This document shows, in pieces, positions 5,308 to 47,406 of a DNA stretch of 64,000 nt. The stretch spans positions 124,001-188,000 of the forward strand of contig RECD01000135.1 in assembly GCA_007694185.1 (NCBI GenBank). The letters run 5' to 3'. The number at the start of each line of letters is the position of its first letter. The first letter of the stretch is position 1. Origin of the DNA: Planctomycetaceae bacterium. Lineage in GTDB: Bacteria; Planctomycetota; Planctomycetia; Pirellulales; Pirellulaceae. The notes under the pieces were generated by a model. The model made no database searches. It saw only the letters and a list, made by a program, of their open reading frames with translations, and was not told the origin of the DNA. The position numbers were made by a program, and so were the translations under genes.

Positions 5308-6549
5308 TCAGGACCATCCGGCCAGTTCCGCAGCCCGGCGAACCCGCGTGATAGCTAGCGTGTAGGCCGCAGCTCGCAGGGAAAGTTTCTGCTGCTGAGA
5401 CAACTGCCAGACCTGTTCGAAAGCGTCACTCAAGGTCTTTTCGAGTTCCTGTCGCACCCGATCCAAGGTCCACCGGTAGTGCTGCCGATTCTGGACCCAC
5501 TCAAAGTAGCTCACCGTGACCCCGCCCGCGTTGGCCAAAATATCCGGCAGGATGGTGACCCCCCGCTCAGTCAATCGCTGATCCGCCAGTGGCAACAGCG
5601 GCTCATTGGCTGCCTCGATGATCACCGTCGCGGAAACCGCGTCGCAATTCTCACCATTGATCACATGCCCCAAGGCTGCGGGGATCAGGATGTCGATCTC
5701 CTCCAGCCACAACACAGATTCGGCCGGCATCACCTCGCATTTGTCGTACCCCTCCAGCGACCGACGCGGGTGGTTCAAGGTGTGCCGCAGCAAATCGGGA
5801 ATATTGAGCCCATCGGCGTCAAAATACGTACCGGAAACGTCAGCGACAGCAACGATCGGAAACTGAGCCTCATGCAGAAACTTGGCGGCATGAGACCCGA
5901 CATTGCCGAATCCCTGAATCGCCACCTTGGAATCACTTGCCTGACGACCGAGCCGCTTGATCAGCCTGGTGGTCAGCGTCCCCACCCCGCGGCCGGTCGC
6001 CTCTTCCCTACCCCGCGCGCCGTATTCCTCGACAGGCTTGCCGGTGATCACCGAAGGGTTGAAGCCGTGATACTTTTCCCATTGATTCCGGAACCAAGCC
6101 ATCACCCGGTGATCGGTCCCCATGTCCGGCGCCGGGATGTCCGTATCCGGACCGACGATGTCGTGGATCTGGTCGACGAATGCTCTGGTCAAACGTTCCA
6201 ATTCCCTCGTCGAAAGCGTTTTCGGGTCAACCCCGATCCCGCCCTTGGCACCGCCGTACGGAAGATCGACCACAGCCGTTTTCCACGTCATCAGACTGGC
6301 CAACGCCCGGACTTCGTCTAAATCGACATCGGGATGGTAACGCAGGCCCCCTTTCATCGGCCCGCGGCTCTTGTTGTGCTGCACCCGATATCCGACGTAG
6401 GTGGCCCACTCGCCGTTGTCGCGTTCAAAACTGACTTGGACCTGAAGCTCGCGAAGCGGCATCAACAACATTTCACGAACCGACGGCTCCAAATCCAATC
6501 GTTCGGCCGCCGCATCGAAGAAAACTCGGGTCGCATCAAACGCTTTCAT
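5308..6549 (-). CDS. gdhA: Glu/Leu/Phe/Val dehydrogenase (glutamate dehydrogenase)
   Basis: NAD(P)-dependent glutamate dehydrogenase family enzyme of 413 residues, interconverting glutamate and 2-oxoglutarate plus ammonia in the cytoplasm. The substrate-binding block KGGLRYHPDVD and the catalytic-lysine block PYGGAKGGI lie in the first 100 residues, then PAPDMGTD, then the Rossmann dinucleotide fold with VAIQGFGNVGSHAA near 215. The C-terminal NAGGVTVSYFEW block is also present. Length is normal for the hexameric short form. The frame runs 35 codons further upstream to 6654, but MKAFDATRVFF matches the normal family N-terminus, so ATG 6549 is used; no good Shine-Dalgarno sequence precedes either. 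Glutamate is the likely substrate, although leucine or phenylalanine activity cannot be excluded. It lies between a 2-hydroxyacid dehydrogenase and htrA on the same strand, with gaps too wide to assume an operon. Confidence 0.88.
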   Translation of the reverse strand: MKAFDATRVFFDAAAERLDLEPSVREMLLMPLRELQVQVSFERDNGEWATYVGYRVQHNKSRGPMKGGLRYHPDVDLDEVRALASLMTWKTAVVDLPYGGAKGGIGVDPKTLSTRELERLTRAFVDQIHDIVGPDTDIPAPDMGTDHRVMAWFRNQWEKYHGFNPSVITGKPVEEYGARGREEATGRGVGTLTTRLIKRLGRQASDSKVAIQGFGNVGSHAAKFLHEAQFPIVAVADVSGTYFDADGLNIPDLLRHTLNHPRRSLEGYDKCEVMPAESVLWLEEIDILIPAALGHVINGENCDAVSATVIIEAANEPLLPLADQRLTERGVTILPDILANAGGVTVSYFEWVQNRQHYRWTLDRVRQELEKTLSDAFEQVWQLSQQQKLSLRAAAYTLAITRVRRAAELAGWS

Positions 6550-6734
6550 GAAGCCGCCACTGAGAAGGTGAAAGGAAACGAACGACCGGCATCGTCTGCG
6601 GACATCCGGGGCCAACCCGACCGACCCGCTCGCCCGCGACTCGACCCGGGCCACAACGATGCCAATCCTCTAGGATAGCGAGTTCATCACTCGCACGGTC
6701 CTGGCGCCAACGAGCCGACTGGCCCGCGCCCTGA

Positions 6735-7706
6735 CTACTTCACGGCCGCTCGCAGCGGTTCGCCCCGCAAACCGAAGATCAAGTTGTCGACACAGATCTC
6801 CGCCATCGCGTCTCGGGCGGCGACCGTAGCGCTGCCGATATGAGGCAGGATCAGGCAATTGCCCAGACCGACCAGGGGGTGCTCCGGCGGCAACGGTTCG
6901 GGCTCCGTGACGTCCAACCCGGCTGCCATCGGTCGCCCTCGACGCAGCGCCGCCACCAACGCGTCCTGATCGATCACCGCCCCTCGCGAGGTGTTGACGA
7001 GCACCGCGGTCGGCTTCATCAGCCCCAATTGCGCCGCCCCGATCATCCCCCGCGTCTGTTCGCTCAGGTCAGTATGCACCGACACAAAGTCGCTTTCGGT
7101 TAGCAGGCGTTCCAGCGAAACTCGCTCCGCCGCCAGCGGGCTGCCGAGTTCCTTGTCGGTCCGGGAGACGTACAACACCTTCATCCCCCAACCACCCGCC
7201 AAGCGCCTGGCGACCGCCTGGCCGATCCGGCCCATTCCGATGATGCCCACAGTGCGGCCGACCAGATCACATCCCAACCAACCGGTCGGTTCCCACGTCA
7301 GCCACTCGCCAGCCCGAACCGAATCGGCTGCCGGGTGAATCTGCCGCGCGGCCGCCAGCAGGAGCGCCACGGCGATGTCTGCTGTCGCGTCGGTCAAAAC
7401 ATCAGGGGTGTTGCCGACCGCGATCCCACGCCGCGCCGCCTCCACCAAGTCGATGTTGTTAACACCGACCGCAAAATTGCTGACCACCTTCAGGCTAGGC
7501 CCCGCCGCTTCGAACACTTCCGCATCGATCCGGTCGGACAACAGCGACAGCAAACCGTGGCAACCGCGTACCGCGGCCAGCAACTCGTCCCGACCAGGCG
7601 GCAGTCGCTCCGGCCAGACGACACAATCGGCGAACGACTGCAACCGATCCAGCCCCGACGAAGGAATCCGCCTGGTTACAAAAACACGCGGCAATGTCGC
7701 ACTCAT
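6735..7706 (-). CDS. D-2-hydroxyacid dehydrogenase (glyoxylate/hydroxypyruvate reductase type)
   Basis: NAD(P)-dependent D-isomer-specific 2-hydroxyacid dehydrogenase of 323 residues, close in layout to glyoxylate reductase/D-glycerate dehydrogenase. The nucleotide-binding loop is GIIGMGRIGQAVA near residue 150. The catalytic Arg lies in NTSRGAVID, the Glu in DVTEPEPLP and the His in PHIGSATVAAR. The sequence around the substrate-binding Gly (FAVGVNNIDL) is typical. ATG 7706 is preceded by AGGTGATC, a good Shine-Dalgarno sequence, so the 22-codon upstream extension is rejected. No signal peptide. The exact substrate (glyoxylate, hydroxypyruvate or another 2-oxoacid) is not decided by sequence. 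Confidence 0.88.
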   Translation of the reverse strand: MSATLPRVFVTRRIPSSGLDRLQSFADCVVWPERLPPGRDELLAAVRGCHGLLSLLSDRIDAEVFEAAGPSLKVVSNFAVGVNNIDLVEAARRGIAVGNTPDVLTDATADIAVALLLAAARQIHPAADSVRAGEWLTWEPTGWLGCDLVGRTVGIIGMGRIGQAVARRLAGGWGMKVLYVSRTDKELGSPLAAERVSLERLLTESDFVSVHTDLSEQTRGMIGAAQLGLMKPTAVLVNTSRGAVIDQDALVAALRRGRPMAAGLDVTEPEPLPPEHPLVGLGNCLILPHIGSATVAARDAMAEICVDNLIFGLRGEPLRAAVK

Positions 7707-7892
7707 GATCACCTGCAATGAAAAAACCTTGAAAATGCAGGGCTCGTCGGCCGAACCTCCCGCCGTGGTCACCCCAGCCAGGCCTGGAGAGGCTGGCCGC
7801 CAGACGCTATGCTTGTCAAGCGGTGGAAACGGGCAGTTGATCGCGTGAACCGCGTTTCAGCAAATCGATTCAGGAAATCGTTCGAGCGAATC

Positions 7893-7979
7893 GGATGGGT
7901 GGCCGAGTGGTCGAAGGCACCGGTCTTGAAAACCGGCGTACTCGCAAGGGTACCGTGGGTTCGAATCCCACCCCATCCG
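7893..7979 (+). tRNA. tRNA-Ser (anticodon TGA)
   Basis: An 87-base tRNA with acceptor GGATGGG (7893-7899) pairing with CCCATCC (7972-7978), discriminator G at 7979, D-arm GGCCGAGTGG and anticodon arm CCGGTCT-TGA-AAACCGG. A long variable arm carries a GTAC...GTAC stem, and the T-arm is GTGGGTTCGAATCCCAC. The class II variable arm and anticodon TGA identify serine (UCA family). CCA is not encoded. Confidence 0.96.
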
Positions 7980-8093
7980 CTTCAAGCTACGGCTATCCAC
8001 CGGGGAATCGCCCTGCCCTGACCCGGGCTGCGATGCGCCGCCGGCGCTGACCCACCCGGCCGAACGGCTGGCGACAACACGGCGCGATCGGAC

Positions 8094-9521
8094 TCAGGGC
8101 ACCGGCCGTTCGGGACGCACGATTCGTGGCGGTGCCGTCCCCTCTAGCCTCGCCTTCTCCTCGGATTCGCGACGCTTTAAATCTCCAGGATGCTTCGAAA
8201 ACGATTCGAAGACGTCGCCGACAACCCGGTCCGCGAGCCGCCCCAAGGTGGCCAAGATCAAACGTTCGGCTTCCGGCTCCAGCCGCGACCGCGTCGGCTC
8301 ATACCCCCCGACCCCGTACGCCTCCTCGGTGGCGATGTAGCCGATATTGCCGTTCGCATAGCCGAGAATGATCGGGATGGCGCGATCGGCGATCGCCGCT
8401 TCTAATTTGAATCCGTATTCGACCATCGGCTCACCCGGCATCGACAGCAGCAGGTAGGGGCCGATCTTCATCGCCATCAGCTCCGCGTCGATCGGCTGCG
8501 CCTTGCCCGGCAGGGTGATCGTTTCGCTGGCAACTCGGATCGGATAGTAGCTGGCTCGCTTGGCCAACTCCTCGCGAATGACGTTGTGCGACAACGCCCG
8601 CACCACCGCGCCTCCCAAATCCCTGCCGGCCCACTGGATATCCGCCTCATCAGCACAGCGATACGGATACCCCGGCAGATTCGGTCGGATATCGCCGGCA
8701 CAACCTTGCAGGAACAGCACCTGCGTCGAATCCGAGTAACTCCGCTCCACAAACGACTGGGCCTCACCCGGAAAATCGGCGGTCATCAGGGGATAGCCGT
8801 TGGGGTACGGCTGCGATCCCTTGTCACCCCAAGTGAAGAAACAGGGGTGGCAAACGGCGTGCATCAGCACCGCGCGGGGCGTCAACGACCGACCATCGTC
8901 AAACCGCAAGACCTTGACTCGCGGGTCGTTGGGGCCAGCGGGGTTCAATCGAACGACGGCCCGACCGTCGATGACTTCACGACGGTTGATTCCGAAACGG
9001 ATCTCGTCTTCCGCGTAGCCGACGCTGACCGGCACCAAATCCTCGGCCGCCGCCGCCGCGGCATCCGTCAGCTTACGCACCAACTCATCAGCCCAATCCG
9101 GTTGGTCCGACCAGCCGGGGGCGGAATGATTGTGAGAGGCGGCGACAAGCACGTTCGGACCGGGTACCCCTGCGACACGCTCGATCTCGACACGCAGCTT
9201 GCGCACCATCTCCTCCCACGCGCCGATCACATCCAAAGTCACGATCGCGGCTCGCGTCTCGCCGTCGTCCAACACCATCACGCCGGCGCGGATCGGATCA
9301 CGCACGCCAGTGACCACGCGAGGATGCCCCGTGACTTTGATGCCGACAGGATTCTCGGGTGTGATATCGACCTTGGCGACTCCGACACGAAGATTTCCCC
9401 GAACGGCAAAACTGCCGTCCCCAACCTCCTCCGCTTGAGAACCGATCGGCACACACAACCCGACCGAACCGACCAGGCAAATGGCCGCGAACGGCCGGCA
9501 AAAGCGGGTGAAGCAAATCAT
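8094..9521 (-). CDS. Secreted neutral ceramidase-like hydrolase (Ser nucleophile replaced)
   Basis: Exported protein of 475 residues with a signal peptide (hydrophobic 8-25, cleavage likely after SQA), related to the N-terminal domain of neutral/alkaline non-lysosomal ceramidase. The family features visible are VGVAKVDITPENPV near residue 47, the metal-ligand loop AASHNHSAP near 128, HAVCHPCF, and QGCAGDIRPN near 270. In characterised ceramidases the last block is GD.SPN, with Ser as nucleophile; here that position is Arg, so true ceramidase activity is doubtful. Planctomycetes carry many such paralogues of unknown substrate. The C-terminal 45 residues are charged low complexity (KRRESEEKARLE). 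It follows the esterase gene on the same strand after 78 bases and may be co-transcribed. Confidence 0.8.
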   Translation of the reverse strand: MICFTRFCRPFAAICLVGSVGLCVPIGSQAEEVGDGSFAVRGNLRVGVAKVDITPENPVGIKVTGHPRVVTGVRDPIRAGVMVLDDGETRAAIVTLDVIGAWEEMVRKLRVEIERVAGVPGPNVLVAASHNHSAPGWSDQPDWADELVRKLTDAAAAAAEDLVPVSVGYAEDEIRFGINRREVIDGRAVVRLNPAGPNDPRVKVLRFDDGRSLTPRAVLMHAVCHPCFFTWGDKGSQPYPNGYPLMTADFPGEAQSFVERSYSDSTQVLFLQGCAGDIRPNLPGYPYRCADEADIQWAGRDLGGAVVRALSHNVIREELAKRASYYPIRVASETITLPGKAQPIDAELMAMKIGPYLLLSMPGEPMVEYGFKLEAAIADRAIPIILGYANGNIGYIATEEAYGVGGYEPTRSRLEPEAERLILATLGRLADRVVGDVFESFSKHPGDLKRRESEEKARLEGTAPPRIVRPERPVP

Positions 9522-9599
9522 CGACGAAATCTCTCACAAACGGGAAAAAATCGGTTTCACATCGCGAGCAGCCAAATTGACCTCGCTACTCGCGATCGA

Positions 9600-10955
9600 T
9601 CATGGCTTGACGGTGGCGGGCGTGGGCGGGGAAACCATCCCCACGCCGTTGATCGTCCGGACGGCGTAACCGGATTCCGCAGCGGCCGAATCCGGCAGTT
9701 CGAACTGCGGCTCAGCCAACGGCAACGCCGGTGTGTCATGATAGCCCGTCCGCTGGAAAACCGTGCGGCCGATGTTGCCAACAGGCTGACGGGGGATGCG
9801 TGCGAACTCACGGCCATCCCGTTCGATGATGAACCCCGAAATGCCACTCTGCAAATCCGCGATCGGCTCCCAAACCAACCGGCGACCCACCAGCCGAACG
9901 ACGGCGGGGGGCGGAGGTGGACTCGGATCGCCGACTTCGCCGTCGTGAACGTACTCCGCGTAGACCTCAGCGACCCGCTCATTCGGCAACCAAACGGATG
10001 TCGCCAATTCACGCGAGTACTCGCCGGCCGGCACCGCCTCGGGACTCAATAGCGGCGCCAACCACGCGTCGGCAGACGCCAGCGCACGCAGCTCCCCGCT
10101 CGCTTCCGTCGGCAACCGGGCCGCCAAACAGGCATCGAACCAGGGGATCGCCAGGTACCGTGAATTGCCGCAATCGTGACTGCTGTTGGGATCGACAGCG
10201 ACCCCGATCAACCCGCCCTGACCGCGGACGTCTGAAAAGAAGACTCGGTTCTTCTCCCAGACTCCCGAGAACCGGCCGTCGGTAACCGTCACCCCTTCCT
10301 CGGTTCCCAGGTTCAGCATCACGGGAACCGACAAAGCCGCCGCGGGTACGGTCATCGATGGCAAGGACGAGTTCGCTTCGGCTTGCATCCGTGGCGTCCC
10401 AGAACGGAGCCAAACCGCCGCGATCCGCTCAGGATGCAACATCAACATCGTTCCCGCCCAAACGCCGCCTCCCGAATGCCCCCACAAGGCCCAAGGGACA
10501 CTCACCAACTCGGGGTGGCCCGTCGCCTCCGCCAAGTCCTGGAGCGCCTCGCGGAACCGCGCGTCCGATCCGTTTCGTGGGTCACACCACAAACCACAAT
10601 CCGCCCCCTCGGGCTGCTCGTAGGACGGACCCAATAGCGCGCAATCGTGTTCCCGAGCCAAAGCTTGCCAGTGCCAATCGAAGGCTGCCGTCAGGCCGCC
10701 TTGGCAGGCCCCCACACCACAGCCGTGCTGATGGACGATCACCCCTCGCAACCGCCGCACCCCGTGAGGAAGCCAGAGCGTGTAGCTGACGCCATGAACC
10801 AATTCGCCAGGTTGATCAGACGGCTCGTAACGAACCCGATAAAATGGGGGCTCGGCCGTCGGCAGCGGGCTTTGGGCCCCTGCTCGGTCACAGGTCACCC
10901 CCATGACGAGCAACGTCCCCAACAGGAATCGCTTCAAGTGTTGCGGGATCTTCAT
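9600..10955 (-). CDS. Secreted alpha/beta-hydrolase (esterase-like)
   Basis: Exported serine hydrolase of 451 residues. A signal peptide is evident (KRFLLGTLLVMGV, cleavage near AGAQS). An oxyanion-region motif HQHGCGVGACQGG lies near residue 76 and the nucleophile elbow GHSGGG near 158. A candidate catalytic His lies in SSHDCGNSRY near 260. The last 100 residues (PPAVVRLVGRRLVWEP...GFIIERDGREFARI) look like a fibronectin type III-like beta domain. The fold resembles planctomycete secreted esterases/peptidases, and the substrate is unknown. Upstream, the DUF4416 gene ends 54 bases away on the same strand and the ceramidase-like gene follows, so the three may form one transcript. Confidence 0.75.
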   Translation of the reverse strand: MKIPQHLKRFLLGTLLVMGVTCDRAGAQSPLPTAEPPFYRVRYEPSDQPGELVHGVSYTLWLPHGVRRLRGVIVHQHGCGVGACQGGLTAAFDWHWQALAREHDCALLGPSYEQPEGADCGLWCDPRNGSDARFREALQDLAEATGHPELVSVPWALWGHSGGGVWAGTMLMLHPERIAAVWLRSGTPRMQAEANSSLPSMTVPAAALSVPVMLNLGTEEGVTVTDGRFSGVWEKNRVFFSDVRGQGGLIGVAVDPNSSHDCGNSRYLAIPWFDACLAARLPTEASGELRALASADAWLAPLLSPEAVPAGEYSRELATSVWLPNERVAEVYAEYVHDGEVGDPSPPPPPAVVRLVGRRLVWEPIADLQSGISGFIIERDGREFARIPRQPVGNIGRTVFQRTGYHDTPALPLAEPQFELPDSAAAESGYAVRTINGVGMVSPPTPATVKP

Positions 10956-34548: not shown

Positions 34549-34965
34549 TCAGCCAAGCCGGGTGGCGATCGTTCGTAGTGACCAGAGATCGGCCAGCAGG
34601 ACCGACACGCCGACCTCCTGCAGCACCAGGCCGCCCTGATGCCACTGCCAACGTGTCCAACCTTCCCCCTCCGGATGCGCGACTTGAATCACCCGACCAT
34701 GGCGATCACGGATTCCGGCCACCCCCGCCAAAATTTCGACGAACCGGTCGGGCGCCGCCGGAACTTCCCACACCACGACCTGACGTGTGTTCGCAAACTC
34801 GTCGAGCCGCGCGAGCAGCCCGTCGAGCTGCCCCGGACGCCAATGTTCTGCTCGCGGCGACTTCAGCCAGCCGGCAGCCCCGAGTCCCCGGAGCGTCTGA
34901 TGCCAACGGTCCCCCGACTCGATGACATGCCAAATCACGCCGGTCGCATCCGCCGAACCGTTCAT
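34549..34965 (-). CDS. Hypothetical protein coupled to the PAS/Fis regulator-like gene
   Basis: A 138-residue protein I do not recognise. It has no signal peptide or membrane segment, is rich in Trp and Gly (GDRWHQTLRGLGAAGWLKSP, WTRWQWHQGG) and contains a strand-like VVVWEVPAAPDRFVEIL. The pattern is that of a small alpha/beta domain, possibly receiver-like without the phosphoacceptor set. Its ATG overlaps the stop of the upstream regulator-like gene by four bases (ATGA). Stable co-translation suggests the two products act together. The next gene, mrp, starts 72 bases further on. Confidence 0.7.
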   Translation of the reverse strand: MNGSADATGVIWHVIESGDRWHQTLRGLGAAGWLKSPRAEHWRPGQLDGLLARLDEFANTRQVVVWEVPAAPDRFVEILAGVAGIRDRHGRVIQVAHPEGEGWTRWQWHQGGLVLQEVGVSVLLADLWSLRTIATRLG

Positions 34966-36395
34966 GAGGCTGCCGGCCCCGCTGTCGGCCCACCGTTCGC
35001 CGCCTGACCGGCGGAGGTTTCTCCCAACCTCCGAATCAACCGGGCGCGACTGATTCCTAACCGCCGCGCAGCCTCACTGCGGTTGCCACCACACAACTCG
35101 ACCGCCGCAGAGATGCGTTCGAATTCGAACCGCCGCAACGATTCGTCGAGTCCCTCGGTGATCACCCCCCTCGGTGAGGTCGCGCGAGGTCGGTACGTCC
35201 GAATCGCCAGCGGCAAGTCGTCAGCTCCGATGACCGCCGATCGACTGGCCGCAACGGCCTGGCGCAAAGCCGCATCGAGCTCGTCGAAGTTTTCCGGCCA
35301 CGGATACCCAAGCAACCGATCGGTCGCCGCTCGACCGAGACGCTCGCCGATCCCTTCGCCCGCAGCATGCCGCCGGTCAACGAGCGCCGTGGCGATCAAT
35401 GGCAGGTCCGCGATCCGTGAGGCGAGCGGGTCGATCCGAATTTCGAGCAGGCTCATGGCGAGCCCCATCGCGACCGACACCCGGCCCGCCTTCAGCCCGC
35501 CAGCGACCTCGGTCCGAAACAGACCGACCACTCTGAGAGATTCGCCCCAACGTGCCGCGAATTCGATCACTCCGTCCTGAATCTCGATGGGCGATTCGTC
35601 CACGCCCCGGAGCAACAAAGTGACCGCACCCGGCGGATTGCCGGCCAAATGAGCGGCCGCCGGTGAGAGCGTCGCCGCCAACAGTTCGGCATCCATCAAC
35701 GGCATGTCCACAACCACGAACGGGTCGTCGTTGGCTACCGCGCCCAAACGGGAGCCCCCTTCGGCTCCCGTCGATGAATGAGCATGGATCCGACGGGCGA
35801 TCCGCTCGCCCCCACATCCCGTCGGACCGACGATCGCGAACGGTTGCCGGGTTGTCGCCGCGATCGAGATCTGCCCTCGAAGCCGAACCGCCGATGGCGA
35901 AGCACCGGCCGTGAGTGCGCCGCCCAAGTCGAGTTGGCCTTGCCGCCATGCGGCGAGCCAATCCCGCATCCGAGACGCGTCCCAAGCTTCCACCGATTCG
36001 GACGGTCGATCGGACGCCCCGCCCCAAGCCAAATACATGCCACCCGGCGACTCACCCCAGCGGAGTATCCGAACCCGCTTGGCAACGCCGTCCGGCGGAC
36101 AAACGGTCAACGTCAACGCTTCCCCGACGCCGAGCCCAGCAGGTGGCGACAAGCAGCTGGTCAACGCGTCGACCCTCGAGCCGATCTCGCTGCCCGGATG
36201 GCAAACTCGCCCCAGCAACGAATCATCACCCACGCTCAGCCAAGCCTGAGCGGCCCGGTTGAGATAGATCAACGTTCGCTGGGCATCGAGCGCCCAAGCC
36301 ACCTCGCCGCAGGCATCCAAACCCTTGACCAAGTCCCTTCCCGCCCGGCGGAAGGCGGCTGATCGAACCGGTGGAGGCGATGGATCGTGCGACAT
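34962..36395 (-). CDS. PAS domain / degenerate sigma54-activator-like protein with Fis HTH
   Basis: A 477-residue protein laid out like a bacterial enhancer-binding protein. It has a PAS-like sensor (about 20-120, GEVAWALDAQRTLIYLNRAAQAWL), a AAA+-like centre (about 165-390) and a C-terminal Fis-type helix-turn-helix (ELCGGNRSEAARRLGISRARL near 437). The centre is degenerate: the Walker A position reads GPTGCGGERIA, lacking the Lys of GxTGTGKE, and no GAFTGA loop that contacts sigma54 is visible. It probably binds DNA but cannot act as a normal ATP-driven sigma54 activator. The open frame starts at a GTG six codons earlier; ATG 36395 is preferred. Its stop overlaps the start of the 138-residue gene. 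Confidence 0.75.
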   Translation of the reverse strand: MSHDPSPPPVRSAAFRRAGRDLVKGLDACGEVAWALDAQRTLIYLNRAAQAWLSVGDDSLLGRVCHPGSEIGSRVDALTSCLSPPAGLGVGEALTLTVCPPDGVAKRVRILRWGESPGGMYLAWGGASDRPSESVEAWDASRMRDWLAAWRQGQLDLGGALTAGASPSAVRLRGQISIAATTRQPFAIVGPTGCGGERIARRIHAHSSTGAEGGSRLGAVANDDPFVVVDMPLMDAELLAATLSPAAAHLAGNPPGAVTLLLRGVDESPIEIQDGVIEFAARWGESLRVVGLFRTEVAGGLKAGRVSVAMGLAMSLLEIRIDPLASRIADLPLIATALVDRRHAAGEGIGERLGRAATDRLLGYPWPENFDELDAALRQAVAASRSAVIGADDLPLAIRTYRPRATSPRGVITEGLDESLRRFEFERISAAVELCGGNRSEAARRLGISRARLIRRLGETSAGQAANGGPTAGPAAS

Positions 36396-36435
36396 GGTCG
36401 GTTCGCGTGCCACACGTCAAACCGACCGCAGCCGC

Positions 36436-38229: not shown

Positions 38230-39681
38230 CTATCGAACCCGGCACTTGAATTCGATCGTCGCCCCTTCGCCAACCTTCAACTCACCGGCCAACTTCCAGG
38301 TCAGTCGCAACGATTGGCCTTCGTTTTCGATCACCGAAAACTCTGCCTCCCGAGAACTGACCTGACTGTCTTCCACGTAAGCCAAGCGTGTCGTCAGGCT
38401 GTCGGTGATCACAATGTCTCGCAGTGGCGAATCGCCGACGTTGTCGACCCGCAACATGAAAGTGACCGTGTCCCCTGGCGCCGCGTCGGCCCGGTCCGCG
38501 ACCTTGCAGATCCGCAGCCTACCGTCGGGGAACTCGTAAACCACCAATTCTCGGGCGACCTGATCTCGAATGACCGTCGCGGCCGTCTGACCCGCGACCA
38601 CCGCGGCGACTTCCTCGTCAACCGACCACGTGATAGCCGCCTCGACACAACGTTCCAACAACGGCAAGTCGTCGAGGATCAGCTCGCCGCGTTGAATGAT
38701 CGATAGGTTGGCGAGCAACTCCAAAACCTCGGCCGCCAACAGCGGTTGCAACACGTTCTCCATCGGCACGCCACGATCCCTTGCCCGCAACGCATCCGGA
38801 CCACGCGTCCGATCGTTCCGCCCGGGCCGATCTCGACCGGTGACCGCCAACCCAGGTAGCTCTCGGTCGATCCCGATCGGGCCATCCTGACGAGCTACCC
38901 GACGGGTGCCAACGGCCAGTTCGCCCAGTTCCGCCCCCGTGACACGTCGCACGGTCCCGAAGCGAGGCGCGTAGACGCAGACCCGGTTGCTCGGTTCGAC
39001 ATGGACATCCCCCCGTTCCGTGGTGTACCGAGCGACCGTGTCCTCCAAACCGACCCCGACGATCCGGTCACCGGCAGCCGCCCGTGCCGGTGGCGGCGCG
39101 TCATCGCCGTTGCACAGAAACTCGTTCGGATCGATCCCTTGGGGATTCGGGACCCAGCCCGGCCCTGGGTAGCCTGCTGCTCCCGGAGGACAGAACGAGC
39201 CGGCGGCTGCCATCCCCAGTCCACCCTGACGGGCCGACGCACAGGCCCAGCACGCCCCCCCGCCAGCAACGCAGTGCCCCGACGGGCAACCCGGTGACGC
39301 CACCGCGCCCGCCCGACTGACCGCTTGGCCGCCTTCCATCTCGCCATATCCCGCCTGGCGGATGTCACCGGAATAACCAGCGGCGCCAGCCGACTCGGCG
39401 GCCTGTGCCACGGTCGGACGAGCGGACTCGATCCGCGGAGGCTCAGCCACCACCGAACGGGTTGGGTGCGGTTGCTCGCTACTAAAGGCCGGCGCAGACG
39501 GATTGGCCAGCGGTCCCCGCCCGACAACCTCGGACAAGACCGTCGTGCGATGCCCGCCACCGCAGCCGACCAACGGGACCAACCAGGTGATGCCGACCAA
39601 CGCCAACCCGGTGGACCAACGCGCCGCCGCATTTGCTTGGCCCTGTCGGTCGGCTCGTAGCCAGTTTCGCTCGATGCGCAT
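38230..39681 (-). CDS. Lipoprotein with DUF11 repeat domain
   Basis: An exported lipoprotein of about 483 residues. A hydrophobic segment ends PLVGCGGG, with lipid-anchored Cys near residue 40. The next 150 residues are low complexity rich in Gly, Ala, Pro and Cys (GCPSGHCVAGGGACWAC). A central globular part (RVCVYAPRFGTVRRV, residues 225-330) leads to a C-terminal DUF11-type beta domain near 395-480 (DTVTFMLRVDNVGDSPL, DIVITDSL). DUF11 domains occur in large surface proteins. The start is unsure: GTG 39741 overlaps the previous stop by four bases, ATG 39726 is in frame, and ATG 39681 (used here) gives the best signal sequence and has AGGG upstream. It is the last of three envelope genes in a row. 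Confidence 0.72.
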   Translation of the reverse strand: MRIERNWLRADRQGQANAAARWSTGLALVGITWLVPLVGCGGGHRTTVLSEVVGRGPLANPSAPAFSSEQPHPTRSVVAEPPRIESARPTVAQAAESAGAAGYSGDIRQAGYGEMEGGQAVSRAGAVASPGCPSGHCVAGGGACWACASARQGGLGMAAAGSFCPPGAAGYPGPGWVPNPQGIDPNEFLCNGDDAPPPARAAAGDRIVGVGLEDTVARYTTERGDVHVEPSNRVCVYAPRFGTVRRVTGAELGELAVGTRRVARQDGPIGIDRELPGLAVTGRDRPGRNDRTRGPDALRARDRGVPMENVLQPLLAAEVLELLANLSIIQRGELILDDLPLLERCVEAAITWSVDEEVAAVVAGQTAATVIRDQVARELVVYEFPDGRLRICKVADRADAAPGDTVTFMLRVDNVGDSPLRDIVITDSLTTRLAYVEDSQVSSREAEFSVIENEGQSLRLTWKLAGELKVGEGATIEFKCRVR

Positions 39682-39737
39682 CGGGTTTGGCCCTGTGGCG
39701 TGGTCGGTTGAATTCGTTTTCGACATCAGAATCGCGA

Positions 39738-40559
39738 TCACGGGGCCGCTGGAGCCGCAGACCGCCCCTCCGGCAACGGCGCCCCCGGCGCCGGCTCGAC
39801 AGCCTCAGGCTGAATCGAGACCCAGGCGGGATAACCGAAAAAAAACTGCGGAAGGAGGCTTTCATGGCTCGGCGGCAAAACCGAACCGATTCGCAAGATC
39901 GCGACCGGTCGCCCCAACGTGTCAGCGGTATGGAGCGGGTCTTGGTAAGCAGGCACGTCGAGCGTGATCGGGGAATCCGGACCCGCATCAAACGCCAACG
40001 CCCCCGCCCGGTCCTCCAAATAGATCACCCGAGTGACCATCAAGCCCGACAAGGCGTCTCGCAAATCATCCAAGTCCAACTCGATCGGGATCGGATACCG
40101 CACGGCCAAGTGATGAGGGGGATACGTCCGATCGATCACTTCCAAAGTCGGGAACAACTCTTCCCCTTCAAAGCCTGGGATCGAGGTGACCCGAAAGCGA
40201 TACACCGCGCCGATCAACAATCCCGCGTGCAAGGATTGCTGCGAATCGTTGGGCGGCTGAAAAACGCCGTCCACCGCCAACGCAAAGGCCGTCTCCCCCG
40301 GCCCGCGGAACGATACCGGCTGAAAGTAGCCGGCGACCGCCCCGCCTCGCTGCAAACGAGCCCCGCCGATATCCCCCGGCGGACTGTCGACCGAAAGGAT
40401 GCGGTGGATCCCCCCGCCGGCACCTCCGGGCGAGGGCAAACCGCCTCCCACTTGGCACCAGGCCGAACCGGCCTGCGACATCCCGATGAATGTTAACGCC
40501 AAACCGACCCAGAACATCCCACCGGTTCGCGATCGCGGTCCGCTGCGTCGTGCTCGCAT
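39738..40559 (-). CDS. Secreted protein, paralogue of the adjacent lipoprotein
   Basis: A 273-residue exported protein of unknown function. The signal peptide is MFWVGLALTFIGMSQAGSAWC. The core (VYRFRVTSIPGFEGEELFPT, then YPIPIELDLDDLRDALSG and VTRVIYLED) aligns clearly with the core of the lipoprotein encoded upstream at 40755-42143. The two look like an old tandem duplication. The last 40 residues are Pro/Ala-rich. ATG 40559 is chosen; the frame opens at a TTG 34 codons earlier. The 3' end meets the DUF11 lipoprotein gene with a possible four-base overlap, so the two are probably one transcript. Confidence 0.7.
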   Translation of the reverse strand: MRARRSGPRSRTGGMFWVGLALTFIGMSQAGSAWCQVGGGLPSPGGAGGGIHRILSVDSPPGDIGGARLQRGGAVAGYFQPVSFRGPGETAFALAVDGVFQPPNDSQQSLHAGLLIGAVYRFRVTSIPGFEGEELFPTLEVIDRTYPPHHLAVRYPIPIELDLDDLRDALSGLMVTRVIYLEDRAGALAFDAGPDSPITLDVPAYQDPLHTADTLGRPVAILRIGSVLPPSHESLLPQFFFGYPAWVSIQPEAVEPAPGAPLPEGRSAAPAAP

Positions 40560-40701
40560 CGATTCTGCCTGCCGTTGGGGTGACTCGTGATCCGTCACGA
40601 GCGTTCGAGTCAGCGATGATTCGCCGGGGGTAAACCGAAAAAGGTCGCGTCCTCGCCGCAACCCTGAAAACCGATCCGACTTGAGTTCATCGGTTGGCCC
40701 C

Positions 40702-40731
40702 GCGGGGCGATCCTCAGTCGGATCGCCCCGC
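40702..40731 (-). terminator. Strong hairpin between the two paralogous envelope genes
   Basis: GCGGGGCGATCC (40702-40713) pairs perfectly with 40720-40731 around a six-base loop. The flanking GGTTGGCC and GGCCGAACC extend the stem with a bulge. It sits 24 bases after the 40755-42143 gene. There is no T-tract on either strand, so it may be an attenuator, an mRNA-stabilising hairpin or a Rho-assisted terminator. Confidence 0.5.
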
Positions 40732-40754
40732 TGGCCGAACCCATCAGCCGGTGA

Positions 40755-42143
40755 TCAGTGGACCCGCTGGCTGGCGTGGTCCGCATGCGGCCGGGTGTGC
40801 GGAATGCCCGGGTGAACATTCTGCTCGGTCATGTGAATCCGGCTGACCGGGTTCGGATAGCTCATGCCCGGGGCTTGACGCACATCCATCCGAATGTCGT
40901 TGACCGGCTGAGGCATGTGCATCGGCGTGTGATTCTTGATCACGTGCCGCTTCAAGCCGGCCGGTCCACCCAACGGGATGTGCGGCGGTCCGGGCAACCC
41001 GATCGGTGTTCCCGACATCGGCATGCCCCACTGCGGAGCCGTCACACCGGCAACCATACCCGGCAAACCTGGCAGGTTCGGATTTCCGTTACCGTTGCCG
41101 CTGCGCGGAGCCATCCCGTCCGGGGCACACCCCTGACTCATCGCCGGTGCAAACGGCAGCGGCATTCCGGCATAGGCTGCGGCGTTCGGGAACATCCCGC
41201 CACCGATACCGCCCTCGCCCGCACCGGCCATCTCGATATCCTTGTCACCCAACCGGATGATCGCCAGGATCGATCCCCGACGGTCGGCTTCGACGATCGG
41301 ATCGACGCCCGGGTCCAACCGTGTGCTGACGATCGTGTCGATGCCGGCCAGCGCAGGACCTTGGAAGTCCGGATCCGGCAGGTAGATCACCTTGGTCACA
41401 AAATTGCCGGACAACACCTGGTCGAAATCTTCCTGCGTGAACTGGATCGGAATCGAGTTGTGCGCCAGGTAAGCTCCGGTCCGCGGGTTGGCGTGGGCCA
41501 ATTCGATGGTCGGGTACAATTCCACGCCCTCACGGCCGCGGATGTTCGTGATTTTGACCCGATACAAGCCTCCCTGCGGGAAGTTCTGACGAGCCGGCAC
41601 GATCAACGGTTCGCTATCGAAACCGCCACTGCCGGTCGCGTCGTAGCGAACTTGCATCGACTCGGGCATCCCGAACGTGACTTGCACGGCAGGCGGAACC
41701 GCCGGCATCATCATGCCGCCGGGCAACACGCCACCGCCAGGAGGAATGCTGCCGCCGTTGACCAGGCCGTGCATCCCCATCAGCCCGCCGGGGCCGCAAT
41801 CGCCGTTGGGACAGTTGCCGTCAGCCGTCATCAGTCCGCCGGGGTGACCACGGAAACCGGCTTGGGCGATCTCGCCACCGCGAGGACCGCCGGCAACCGA
41901 CCCTTCCGGTCCGTCGCCGGACAACATGCCCATCGGATATCCACCGGGCATCATTCCAGGCATCATTCCGGGACCGGGCTGGACGGGAACCGGACCAAGA
42001 ACACCAGGTCCAGGACCGCCGACCCCCGGGCCGGGTTCCATCAACCGCTGCTCGGGCGGCAGGTTGTGTCGTACTGGCACACAGCCAGTGGCCATGGTGG
42101 CCGCCGCGACCAGCAGCGGCAAGTGGGTGACAGGGCGTCTCAT
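40755..42143 (-). CDS. Gly/Pro/Met-rich lipoprotein
   Basis: An exported lipoprotein of 462 residues; signal sequence LLVAAATMATGC puts the lipidated Cys at 21. Residues 30-160 are low complexity rich in Gly, Pro and Met (PGPGMMPGMMPGGYPMGM). A globular domain near 180-320 (LYRVKITNIRGREGVELYPT, IPIQFTQEDFDQVLSGNF, VTKVIYLPD) is shared with the next gene downstream. The last 100 residues are again Pro/Gly/Met/His-rich. ATG 42143 has GGGGGAAA just upstream, which decides the start over the 32-codon extension. An outer-membrane or surface location is likely. Function unknown. Confidence 0.75.
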   Translation of the reverse strand: MRRPVTHLPLLVAAATMATGCVPVRHNLPPEQRLMEPGPGVGGPGPGVLGPVPVQPGPGMMPGMMPGGYPMGMLSGDGPEGSVAGGPRGGEIAQAGFRGHPGGLMTADGNCPNGDCGPGGLMGMHGLVNGGSIPPGGGVLPGGMMMPAVPPAVQVTFGMPESMQVRYDATGSGGFDSEPLIVPARQNFPQGGLYRVKITNIRGREGVELYPTIELAHANPRTGAYLAHNSIPIQFTQEDFDQVLSGNFVTKVIYLPDPDFQGPALAGIDTIVSTRLDPGVDPIVEADRRGSILAIIRLGDKDIEMAGAGEGGIGGGMFPNAAAYAGMPLPFAPAMSQGCAPDGMAPRSGNGNGNPNLPGLPGMVAGVTAPQWGMPMSGTPIGLPGPPHIPLGGPAGLKRHVIKNHTPMHMPQPVNDIRMDVRQAPGMSYPNPVSRIHMTEQNVHPGIPHTRPHADHASQRVH

Positions 42144-42413: not shown

Positions 42414-43658
42414 ATGAAACTGATCCGACACACCCCACACATCTTCAACCGGGCACTTGAGGCACCGCAGATCGCCCAGTCCCCCGCCGCCACCGATCGC
42501 GTTGCGGGGGAACGGTCGCCGATACCCCGACTGACGCGCCGCCGCAAACCGTGGTGGCAACCCGGCACGCTAGGCCTGCTCACCTGCTTGCTAACCAGCC
42601 TGCTCGTACTGACAACCCTGCCGCTCGGTCTCGCCCAACCGGTCGCTGCCACCACTTCCACCAGCCCTTCGAGCAACAACCAACCGACGCTGCTGGTCGC
42701 GCGAACCCTCGAACGATTGGCGATGGGAGACGCTTTCGACGCCAAACTGCGACAGCGAATTTGGGTCGGAGGACGCGAGGTGGTCGGGATCGGTCGTTAC
42801 GAACAGAGTGGTGAGGGGAGCGGGCGACTGAGCCTCGAAATGACCATCCACGATGGCGATTCTCGACACGAACTGCGACAGATTTCAGACGGAAAACTCG
42901 CCTGGTTCCGCTCCCAAGTCGGTGAGGAGATTACCCTCCGACGCGTGGACGTCGGACGGATCAAGGAGATCCATCAAGAACTGACCCGACCGATCGATCC
43001 CCTGCTGGGAAAGCGTCAGGTGCCTGCAACCCTGACATCGACCGGAACCACACCAAACGCCCGCCAGCCAGCCCAGACCGTGCCACCCTGGTTGCGCGTG
43101 GGTGGCCTGGCCGAATTGCTCGACACCGTCGCCCAGGACTACGACCTGCGTCTTACCCATGGCAAAGTCGATGACGCGCCGGTCTGGATCCTCCGTGGTG
43201 TGCTCCGCGCCGACGCCCGAACCCGCATCTTGCAAGATCGTGACCCGGACGATTGGCCGACGCTCGGCCCCCACGAAGTACGGCTCGCGATCGCCGCTTC
43301 CGGCGACGAATCAGGTTTTGGCATCGGCCTGCCCGTGCGCATCGAATTCTGGAGCGAACCGCCTCGTGAACCGCCGGTTGAAGCGGATGGCTCCCCAAAG
43401 TCCGACCCAGACTCGCCCGCTTCGTCGGACAACCGGACAGATGAGACCTCCCAAGCCCCCGCGAATCGACCGCGAGTGACTCCCGACACCCCTTCCGGAC
43501 GGCTGATCAGCTTATTGGAGATCTACGCGGTCCGCAAAATCCGACCGTCTCCCGAACAACGGTTTCGCTTCGAACGCGAAGAACGGGACGTGTCGTTTTC
43601 GAACGATACCCGGCGCTACCTCGATCGATTGGAAAGCTCATCCAGATCGATCCGATAG
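42414..43658 (+). CDS. Secreted protein of unknown function, possibly LolA-like fold
   Basis: A 414-residue exported protein. A basic, 47-residue n-region precedes the hydrophobic segment (LGLLTCLLTSLLVLTTLPLGLA), so the actual start may be internal, although no better one is evident. Residues 95-175 (FDAKLRQRIWVGGREVVGIGRY, GRLSLEM, LRQISDGKLAWF) have the alternating strand pattern of LolA-like lipoprotein carriers; this is a guess from pattern only. A disordered Pro/Ser/Asp stretch lies near 325-360. Its 3' end overlaps the convergent next gene by 43 bases. Confidence 0.65.
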   Translation: MKLIRHTPHIFNRALEAPQIAQSPAATDRVAGERSPIPRLTRRRKPWWQPGTLGLLTCLLTSLLVLTTLPLGLAQPVAATTSTSPSSNNQPTLLVARTLERLAMGDAFDAKLRQRIWVGGREVVGIGRYEQSGEGSGRLSLEMTIHDGDSRHELRQISDGKLAWFRSQVGEEITLRRVDVGRIKEIHQELTRPIDPLLGKRQVPATLTSTGTTPNARQPAQTVPPWLRVGGLAELLDTVAQDYDLRLTHGKVDDAPVWILRGVLRADARTRILQDRDPDDWPTLGPHEVRLAIAASGDESGFGIGLPVRIEFWSEPPREPPVEADGSPKSDPDSPASSDNRTDETSQAPANRPRVTPDTPSGRLISLLEIYAVRKIRPSPEQRFRFEREERDVSFSNDTRRYLDRLESSSRSIR

Positions 43659-45348: not shown

Positions 45349-47406
45349 TTGAATGCCTCGCACGTGTACCGTTCGCCCCCGCCACCCCTCCCCACCACGG
45401 CCGATCTCCGCGATTGCCTCGATCGCCTTCGTGGGGAACTGCTGACGTTTCGCACCCCCGACGGCCACTGGGAGGGGGAACTCTCGGCTTCAGCCCTCAG
45501 CACCGCGACGGCGATCAGCGCCTTGTCAGCGATGGTTTTGGCCGGCGTCGTCGAATCGCCCCAACCGGCAGTGATGATCCGTCAGGGACTGCGTTACCTC
45601 GACTCCCAACAGAACGCCGACGGCGGTTACGGCGATACCGACCGCAGCCACAGCAACATCGCGACTTCGTACCTGGTGCTGGCCGCACGCACATTGGCCG
45701 CACGCACATTGGCCGAAAGCGGTGATGCCGCGATCGCCGAACCCGACGCGACCGATCCGCTGGTCGAATCGATGTCGCGTTTGAACGGCTACCTCGATCG
45801 CGCCGGCCGTCTGGATGGCCTCCGCCGGCGCTACGGCCGTGACAAAACGTTCGTCGTCCCGATCCTGACGAACCTGGCAATCGCCGGTCTGGTCGACTGG
45901 AAACAAATCCCCCGACTGCCGTTTGAAGCCGCGATCTTCCCGGGTGCGATGTATCGGTTCCTCCGCATGCCGGTGGTCAGCTACGCGATTCCGGCGCTCG
46001 TGGCGATCGGCCAAGCCCACCACTTTTGTGGACCGCCCGCCCCCTGGCCGCTCCGAACGATCCGCTCGGCTGCCGTCGGTCCGACGATGCGGGTCCTGCA
46101 ACGGATGCAACCCGACAGCGGCGGCTACCTCGAAGCCACGCCGCTGACGTCCTTCGTGCTGATGAGCCTCGCGGCCAGCGGCCGCGGCTCTCACCCTGTC
46201 TCCCTCCGTTGCCTCGAGTTTCTCCAAACGTCGATCCGACCGGATGGGTCCTGGCCGATCGACACGAACCTGGCGACCTGGGTCACCTCGCTGGCGATTC
46301 ACGCCCTGGCTCAAGACCCGCAGGATGATGGCCGCTGGGCGACCGCGCCACTGATCGATTGGCACCTGGGCTGCCAACACCAGACCCGACACCCCTTCAC
46401 CGGCGCCGACCCGGGCGGATGGGGCTGGACCGACCTCTCCGGGGCAGTCCCCGACGGTGACGATACCCCCGCCGCCGTGTTGGCGATCGCCGATTACCTG
46501 ACGCAACTCGAATCGCTGGCCCACGCCCACAGGGCTCGAGAAGCCGCGAGCCGCGGTATCCGTTGGCTGCTGAAGCTCCAAAACCGTGACGGCGGCCTGC
46601 CGACCTTCTGCCGCGGCTGGGGCAAGCTGCCCTTCGACCGCAGCAGCACCGACCTGACCGCCCACCTGATCCGCGCCCTGGATGCCGTGCCGCGATCCGG
46701 GCTCATGGGCCTCACCGCTTCGCAATTCGCCCGATCCCGTCGCCAGGCGATCCGCTTTCTGCTGCGAAACCAACAGCCCGATGGCCATTGGAAACCGCTC
46801 TGGTTCGGCAACCAAGATCACCCAGACGAGGAAAATCCGGTCTACGGCACGTCCCGCGTCCTCTTGGCGATCGCCGACGACACCGCCATGACGGATTCCG
46901 CCGCCAGGGCAACCGAGTTCCTGCTCCAGCACCAAAACGCCGATGGTGGCTGGGGCGGAGGCCCCTCGGTGATGACGCAGCGCGGAGGCCCCTCCACAGC
47001 GACACAGCGCGGAGGCCCTTCAATGGCGGATCAAACCGAAGACGGGCCGATCACCGACGCAATCGCCGGAGCCCAACTCGGCCCTCGATCGAGCCTTGAG
47101 GAGACAGCCGTTGCGGTCGAGGCCCTCGTCGCCGCCTTTCGGGCGACACCGCACCAGCCCTCGGGGCACGCAGACCGCTGTGAAGCGGCTATACTGGCGG
47201 GCTGTGGGTTCCTGACCAACTCGGTAGCCTCGGGACTTCATCGAGAACCGTGGCCGATCGGGTTTTATTTTGCGAAACTTTGGTACCACGAGAGGCTTTA
47301 TCCGATCGTGTTCACGATGGCCGCACTCGGCGCCGCGTTGCGGTGGCTGCCACGAACAGATCCGAATCAGCTACCGGCAAACCCATCGTCCAAGCCGATC
47401 CCCTGA
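45349..47406 (+). CDS. Squalene/hopene cyclase-like class II terpene cyclase
   Basis: Predicted class II (protonation-initiated) triterpene cyclase of 685 residues, related to squalene-hopene cyclase. The general-acid motif DGDD is intact at 369-372 within VPDGDDTPAAVLA, where SHC has DVDDTAVV. QW-type repeats include QNADGGYG (88-95), GSWPIDTNLATW (300-311), NRDGGLPTF, QPDGHWKPLWFG and QNADGGWGGG, and the end block GFYFAKLWYHERLYP matches the SHC C-terminus. Divergence from true SHC is clear (for example SLEETAVAVEAL for the usual PSQTAWALMAL), so the substrate may not be squalene. An in-frame 27-base repeat inserts a GGPS..TQR run before the last QW motif. The start is a TTG (45349); GTG 45364 is an alternative. 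It is the first gene of a probable three-gene operon. Confidence 0.82.
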   Translation: MNASHVYRSPPPPLPTTADLRDCLDRLRGELLTFRTPDGHWEGELSASALSTATAISALSAMVLAGVVESPQPAVMIRQGLRYLDSQQNADGGYGDTDRSHSNIATSYLVLAARTLAARTLAESGDAAIAEPDATDPLVESMSRLNGYLDRAGRLDGLRRRYGRDKTFVVPILTNLAIAGLVDWKQIPRLPFEAAIFPGAMYRFLRMPVVSYAIPALVAIGQAHHFCGPPAPWPLRTIRSAAVGPTMRVLQRMQPDSGGYLEATPLTSFVLMSLAASGRGSHPVSLRCLEFLQTSIRPDGSWPIDTNLATWVTSLAIHALAQDPQDDGRWATAPLIDWHLGCQHQTRHPFTGADPGGWGWTDLSGAVPDGDDTPAAVLAIADYLTQLESLAHAHRAREAASRGIRWLLKLQNRDGGLPTFCRGWGKLPFDRSSTDLTAHLIRALDAVPRSGLMGLTASQFARSRRQAIRFLLRNQQPDGHWKPLWFGNQDHPDEENPVYGTSRVLLAIADDTAMTDSAARATEFLLQHQNADGGWGGGPSVMTQRGGPSTATQRGGPSMADQTEDGPITDAIAGAQLGPRSSLEETAVAVEALVAAFRATPHQPSGHADRCEAAILAGCGFLTNSVASGLHREPWPIGFYFAKLWYHERLYPIVFTMAALGAALRWLPRTDPNQLPANPSSKPIP
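45681..45710 (+). repeat. Perfect 15-bp tandem duplication inside the cyclase gene
   Basis: GGCCGCACGCACATT occurs twice in direct succession (45681-45695 and 45696-45710), giving the peptide repeat AARTL-AARTL. It keeps the frame and is probably a recent slippage event in a helix. Confidence 0.9.
46957..47037 (+). repeat. In-frame 27-bp tandem repeats in the cyclase gene
   Basis: Units at 46957-46983 and 46984-47010 begin GGAGGCCCCTC and end CAGCGC; a third, diverged unit starts at 47011. They encode GGPSVMTQR, GGPSTATQR and GGPSMADQT, a flexible insertion between two conserved QW blocks. Confidence 0.88.

What the first reader, a model, noticed from the sequence alone, without database searches (positions are those of the whole stretch)
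38230..42143. Tandem envelope paralogues plus a DUF11 lipoprotein
The proteins at 39738-40559 and 40755-42143 share a core (YR.....I.G.EG.EL.PT...; IPI.......D.L.G..VT.VIYL.D) but differ in anchoring: one is a lipoprotein with Gly/Pro/Met-rich arms, the other a plain secreted protein. A third lipoprotein with a DUF11 domain follows. This may be a surface-layer or cell-wall-substitute module.
Basis: partly seen in the sequence, partly recalled or inferred. Interest (0 to 1): 0.5.

Follow-up and report, generated by a model that had tools for sequence, protein, structure and literature searches.

The report
Planctomycetia-only envelope protein gene cluster
Neighbouring genes for secreted and membrane-anchored envelope proteins turn up in almost every sampled genome of one class of planctomycete bacteria and in no sampled planctomycete outside it, so they may help build that class's unusual cell surface; what they do is not yet known.

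Summary
P1 (40755-42143) and P2 (39738-40559) share a ~155-residue domain (BLASTP E 6e-13; profile-profile probability 99.7%). P3 carries DUF11. P1 and P3 have lipoprotein signals, P2 an ordinary signal peptide. The shared domain has no credible match in Pfam, NCBIfam or the PDB.

P1, P2 and P3 profiles hit 194, 195 and 195 of 198 class genomes (P1/P2 cross-hit; some P3 hits are DUF11 only). P1 and P2 profiles hit none of the 273 other phylum genomes sampled, where the control Omp85 is found in 98 of 103. P1 and P2 fall on two sides of a fully supported branch: one duplication before the class radiated. P2 and P3 are fused in several families. A strong, sequence-variable hairpin follows P1 in 81 of 94 loci (59 of 312 after other long ORFs). 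A fourth gene, divergent from P1, is conserved beside it.

Best reading: a class-specific periplasmic or outer-membrane scaffold complex (inferred). The surface-layer or wall-substitute idea has no support beyond envelope location. The distribution resembles that reported for budding and crateriform structures: testable, unproven.

The parts
40755..42143 (-). P1: lipoprotein with disordered Gly/Pro/Met-rich arms around the shared core
41229..41699 (-). P1 core domain, residues 149-305 (shared with P2)
40809..41066 (-). P1 conserved C-terminal stretch, about residues 360-445, no confident fold predicted
40692..40741 (-). RNA hairpin between P1 and P2 (inner stem 40702-40731)
   Evidence: fold -42.8 kcal/mol, z -4.75; hairpin at this position in 81 of 94 loci, control 59 of 312
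39738..40559 (-). P2: secreted paralogue of the P1 core, ordinary signal peptide
39873..40337 (-). P2 core domain, residues 75-229
38230..39741 (-). P3: DUF11 lipoprotein; start uncertain (39741 GTG overlapping the P2 stop, 39726 ATG or 39681 ATG)
38944..39129 (-). P3 conserved small beta domain, residues 199-260 of P0003
38236..38517 (-). P3 DUF11 (Ig-like) domain, residues 403-496 of P0003
42414..43658 (+). Q4: divergent gene with an N-terminal hydrophobic stretch (by eye), no known domain, conserved next to P1

Best explanation
An ancient, vertically inherited envelope locus of the class Planctomycetia that encodes parts of one periplasmic or outer-membrane scaffold complex. SHOWN: P1 and P2 are duplicates of one unnamed domain; P3 carries DUF11; the genes are near-universal in the sampled class, collinear, and (P1, P2) not found in the sampled rest of the phylum; P2 and P3 are fused in several families; a hairpin follows P1; Q4 lies divergent beside P1. 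INFERRED: P1 is lipid-anchored, probably in the outer membrane, and displays its core on flexible arms. P2 pairs with P1's core or competes for the same partner. P2 and P3 act together, hence the fusions, with P3's Ig-like DUF11 domain as spacer or binding module. The hairpin ends, attenuates or protects P1 mRNA so that P1 is made in excess over P2-P3.
For: Class sample: P1 194, P2 195, P3 195 of 198; rest of phylum: P1 and P2 in 0 of 273, control Omp85 in 98 of 103. Same strand and order in 76 of 76 judgeable named loci and 20 of 20 others. P2-P3 in one ORF in 11 of 20 other loci (10, plus L185), in L154, and in one open frame in 7 of 100 family genomes. P1 and P2 separate with 100/100 support. 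Lipoboxes on P1 and P3, not P2. Hairpin after P1 in 81 of 94 loci against 8 of 79 after P2 and 27 of 85 after P3 and 59 of 312 after other ORFs.
Against: No complex, localisation or abundance was measured. The core has no clear structural relative, so the scaffold role rests on anatomy alone. In 14 of 75 named loci P1 has an ordinary signal peptide instead of a lipobox, and in the fusions read through P3 has no lipobox, so lipid anchoring is not essential. Two high-quality class genomes (G213, G247) lack P1 and P2. P1's C-terminal stretch is only partly matched in families f12 and f14. Q4 was found in only 57 of 98 class genomes. Only 14 of 94 hairpins have 5 or more T in the next 8 bases.
Confidence: 0.5

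Rival explanations
1. Surface-layer or disulfide-linked cell-wall-substitute module: the proteins form an abundant cross-linked shell.
For: Secreted or lipidated Gly/Pro-rich proteins; P3 has conserved cysteines and DUF11, a domain recalled from chlamydial OmcB.
Against: Low cysteine in P1 and P2 (medians 3 and 0.5); no S-layer domain; other proteins top a T. immobilis wall preparation (PMC8567305).
Confidence: 0.12
2. Outer-membrane biogenesis or transport accessory: P1, P2 and P3 are periplasmic helpers, not structural parts.
For: Near-universality in the class; a lipid-anchored and a soluble paralogue of one domain suits a carrier and acceptor pair (inference); Q4 lies beside P1.
Against: No similarity to known carriers or chaperones in Pfam, NCBIfam or PDB; long low-complexity arms are unusual for carriers (inference).
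Confidence: 0.13
3. Surface adhesion or fibre module: DUF11 and CnaB-like sandwiches build an appendage.
For: P3's C-terminal domain resembles adhesin and pilin domains (9ifr CLIPPER Z 7.3, rmsd 2.2, 91 aligned; CppA pilin Z 7.3) and matches 9ifr by sequence at E 0.014. P1's core aligns with CnaB2 8bdw (Z 5.5, rmsd 3.3, 80 aligned).
Against: All these Z values are in the range the tool calls common arrangements; adaptor and integrin domains score as high (AP-4 mu4 Z 7.7). One DUF11 domain only. Near-universality argues against a niche adhesin (inference).
Confidence: 0.1

Closest known systems
DUF11 proteins (PF01345 / TIGR01451)
   Same: P3 has one DUF11 domain above both curated cut-offs.
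   Different: P3 also has a conserved beta domain, a cysteine-bearing disordered arm and a lipobox; the tie to P1 and P2 is not part of the DUF11 family.
CLIPPER domain of a Gram-negative fibrillar adhesin (PDB 9ifr)
   Same: Weak sequence match to P3's DUF11 part (E 0.014) and a similar predicted fold (Z 7.3).
   Different: Domain level only; unrelated domains score as high.
Cysteine-rich YTV wall proteins and GMBLW1_25620 of Tuwongella immobilis (PMC8567305)
   Same: Envelope proteins reported as confined to a planctomycete group (section 21).
   Different: Described as cysteine-rich, or mostly 93-158 kDa; not compared by sequence here.
Chlamydial OmcA/OmcB (recalled, no call)
   Same: Recalled: a lipoprotein next to a DUF11-type protein in a PVC-group envelope.
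   Different: Not compared here; P1 and P2 are cysteine-poor.

Membership tests
DUF11 domain family (P3) | Score above the curated cut-off | tested here: met
   33.5 bits against 24.6; TIGR01451 40.7 against 24; DUF11 in 64 of 66 rows of A5 at E <= 0.01
Bacterial lipoproteins (P1, P3) | Signal peptide ending in a lipobox cysteine | tested here: met
   Window P1 and P3 by sequence; relatives by a home-made rule
Bacterial lipoproteins (P1, P3) | Lipid attached, sorted to the outer membrane | not testable with these tools
   Needs experiment
One paralogous family (P1 and P2) | Shared domain by sequence and profile | tested here: met
S-layer or wall proteins | A recognised S-layer or wall domain in P1 or P2 | tested here: not met
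   only one weak, implausible match
Cysteine-rich cross-linked wall proteins | High cysteine content | tested here: inconclusive
CnaB / pilin-like sandwich (P1 core) | Same fold | tested here: inconclusive
   Z 5.5, rmsd 3.3, 80 aligned with 8bdw; Foldseek none at E <= 0.001
Crateriform-structure component | Protein located in the structure | not testable with these tools
   Needs labelling and electron microscopy

The most novel reading that the evidence does not exclude
P1, P2, P3 (and Q4) are core parts of a class-defining cell-surface machine: the crateriform outer-membrane complexes that fasten the outer to the inner membrane, or the budding site. Both traits are reported for Planctomycetia and as lacking in described Phycisphaeraceae (one strain's division mode being unclear), much the same split as the genes. 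Lipidated P1 would sit in the outer membrane while P2-P3 bridge inward.
Probability: 0.12. Interest if true: 0.88.

Novelty: new variant of a known kind. Interest (0 to 1): 0.55.

Why it matters
[quoted passage not shown] A near-universal, class-restricted envelope locus with an unnamed domain gives a short candidate list of three or four genes for such class-specific traits. It can be tested in Planctopirus limnophila, for which transposon data are published (PMC10632474). It also adds an unannotated protein family found in almost every sampled genome of a whole class.

Tried and rejected
Triple fusion P1-P2-P3: L181 (G134) shows one 1192-aa frame, but a P2-type signal peptide is still inside it, so a lost stop or frame error is likelier; not claimed.

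'P1 and P2 in one ORF' for L125, L147, L160, L162 and L185 is an artefact: the P2 profile hit P1's own core, in four because the contig ends, in L185 because the real P2 lies in the next ORF, fused to P3.

Cross-hits: the P1 and P2 profiles hit each other's core, so one match per genome does not tell them apart. In one search, 187 of 198 genomes have two or more matches and 8 have one (G172, G218, G239, G245, G260, G264, G273, G279). In one search, G052's only match lies in the frame that P1 hit. P3's profile also hits other DUF11 proteins; many best stretches in f12 and f14 cover the DUF11 part only, and G041 is a DUF11-only match.

Fold-based function: no clear relative of P1; P3's Ig-like domain matches many unrelated chains. 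Adhesin, integrin and adaptor labels were not taken as function. P3's beta domain and P1's C-terminal stretch were not folded alone. The best row for P1, 2zyr (a lipase, Z 5.8), was not followed.

Q4 as a LolA-like carrier: suggested by eye, unsupported.

Terminator after P1: the consensus scan lists two weak minus-strand sites in the P1-P2 gap but not the large hairpin, which lacks a T-run, and no sigma-70-type promoter. Terminator, attenuator or stabiliser stays open.

Papers: passages only of PMC5394234, PMC10632474, PMC8882080, PMC7783415, PMC10945688 (85, a reference entry only) and PMC11131199; outline, abstract, section 21 and passages of PMC8567305; all others as search listings. No description of this locus was seen (open-licence papers; no search by locus tag).
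Full report
WHAT WAS CHECKED. Three genes lie on the minus strand in the order P1 (40755-42143, 462 aa), P2 (39738-40559, 273 aa), P3 (38230-39741, 483-503 aa depending on the start). P1 and P2 share a domain: 35% identity over 110 aa, E 6e-13. A search of the own genome with P1 finds P1 and P2 only. Profiles of relatives align over about 150 columns with 99.7% probability. P3 has one DUF11 domain above curated cut-offs.

HOW WIDESPREAD. In 100 genomes of the family, single-sequence searches matched P1 in 97, P2 in 97 and P3 in 96, and 72 of 72 high-quality genomes each; one P2 match (G052) is P1's core and one P3 match (G041) is DUF11 only. In 198 genomes drawn from the class, profiles matched P1 in 194, P2 in 195 and P3 in 195 (175, 175 and 176 of 177 high-quality ones). 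Because P1 and P2 profiles cross-hit, the firmer figure is that 187 of 198 genomes hold at least two matches to the P2 profile. In 294 genomes drawn from the phylum, P1 and P2 profiles each matched 21, all of them class members; the other 273 had neither, among them 134 of high quality (each call lists 20 of those 273 by name of handle, all marked 'same phylum'). P3's profile matched 19 genomes outside the class, always from model position 221 on, that is in or near the DUF11 part. As a control, Omp85 was found in 104 of 109 phylum genomes, 98 of the 103 outside the class. Named relatives (the best 80 of 473 confirmed loci: Rhodopirellula, Rubripirellula, Pirellula, Stieleria and others) place the window in the Pirellulaceae; Rhodopirellula belongs to class Planctomycetia. 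No other phylum was searched with these profiles.

GENE ORDER AND FUSION. In the 80 named loci and 20 loci taken from six other families (L174-L193), P1 precedes P2 on the same strand wherever P2 can be judged: 76 of 76 and 20 of 20 (four named contigs end too early). P3 follows in 69 of 80 named loci, the other 11 running out of contig, and in all 20 others. P2 and P3 form one ORF in 11 of the 20 (10; L185) and in L154. Two of these read through (L182, L186) show one N-terminal signal peptide, the P2 core, then P3 with no second signal. In seven of 100 family genomes (G012, G047, G049, G051, G076, G093, G096) P2 and P3 also lie in one open frame. Fusion or fission probably happened more than once, which suggests that the two products act together (inference).

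ORIGIN. In a tree of 71 core domains (36 P1, 35 P2) the two lie on either side of one branch with 100/100 support, in all bootstrap trees; within each side the genome families mostly group. One duplication before the class radiated and vertical descent since is the simplest reading. P1's branches are much shorter than P2's.

ANATOMY. P1's core is predicted with confidence over residues 151-250 (pLDDT blocks 86-94), less so to 305; the arms are disordered. A C-terminal stretch (about 360-445) is strongly conserved in near relatives although no fold is predicted. No solved structure matches clearly: Foldseek none at E <= 0.001, best VIA-align Z 5.8, CnaB2 and pilin sandwiches at 5.3-5.5. The window's P1 and P2 match nothing in Pfam or NCBIfam; against Pfam, 76 P1 rows gave nothing and 69 P2 rows one weak, implausible match. 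P3 has a disordered N-terminal arm, a small beta domain (199-260), helices and the DUF11 Ig-like domain (pLDDT 91-98). P1 and P3 have lipobox-like signals in most relatives, P2 seldom; in the fusions read through, P3 has none.

First, a strong RNA hairpin follows P1's stop: in the window -42.8 kcal/mol, z -4.75. The best 45-nt fold within 130 nt of P1's stop beats shuffles by 5 kcal/mol or more in 81 of 94 usable loci, against 8 of 79 after P2, 27 of 85 after P3, and 59 of 312 after other long ORFs of the named loci. Its letters differ between genera. Only 14 of 94 have 5 or more T in the next 8 bases. Second, Q4 (42414-43658, +), divergent from P1: a relative is found in 68 of 68 named loci with enough upstream sequence (67 by a strict adjacency rule) and in 15 of 20 others (13 strict); it was missed in L186-L189 and L192. 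The Q4 profile was built from such named loci, so the first figure is not independent. In the class it matched 57 of 98 genomes. It matches no known domain credibly.

MECHANISM. The best-supported reading is a class-specific envelope scaffold complex: lipid-anchored P1 with flexible arms, its soluble paralogue P2, and partner P3 with an Ig-like spacer. Signals, fusion, co-occurrence and hairpin are shown; complex formation, outer-membrane location and dosage control are inferred.

WHY IT COULD BE MORE. Passages state that Planctomycetia bud while Phycisphaerae and Brocadiae divide by binary fission, and that described Phycisphaeraceae lack crateriform structures (PMC8882080; its table has 'n.d.' for one species). 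Against a clean split, images of Poriferisphaera corsica suggested budding and its division is listed as inconclusive (PMC7783415). Crateriform structures are described as outer-membrane complexes, at least some connected to the cell membrane (PMC5394234). The gene distribution has much the same split, but any class-specific gene would; hence a lead at 12%.

LIMITS. Genomes were drawn by the tool and are unnamed. The lipobox rule, hairpin test and adjacency rule are home-made. Two high-quality class genomes lack P1 and P2 (G213, G247). There is no laboratory evidence.

Noticed in passing
window 42414-43658 (+): Q4, a gene without known domain, divergent from P1 and conserved beside it (68 of 68 named loci, 15 of 20 others; 57 of 98 class genomes).
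   Followed up: partly
window 40692-40741 (-): Strong hairpin between P1 and P2, kept in place but not in letters across genera.
   Followed up: partly
L181 (G134), ORF 6224-9799 (-): P1, P2 and P3 in one 1192-aa frame with a P2-type signal peptide still inside; probably a lost stop or frame error.
   Followed up: partly
G147:C178:76729-77427: A further copy of the core inside a 1709-aa open frame, away from the locus.
   Followed up: no
G075:C2:26425-27084, G011:C1:5927138-5927869, G045:C2:2327338-2327979; G101:C1:79049-79657: P2 matches with one or two in-frame stops inside the aligned stretch; may be read-past ends or broken copies.
   Followed up: no
window 45349-47406 (+): Squalene-hopene cyclase-like protein (PF13243 E 1.3e-30) near the locus.
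   Followed up: no
window 34962-36413 (-): Regulator-like protein with a Fis-type HTH (PF02954) and remnants of a sigma-54 activator domain below or near cut-off.
   Followed up: no
named loci L138, L142, L144, L146, L149, L151, L155, L157, L158, L160, L161, L163, L169, L170: P1 has an ordinary signal peptide instead of a lipobox by the home-made rule, so the lipid anchor can be lost.
   Followed up: no
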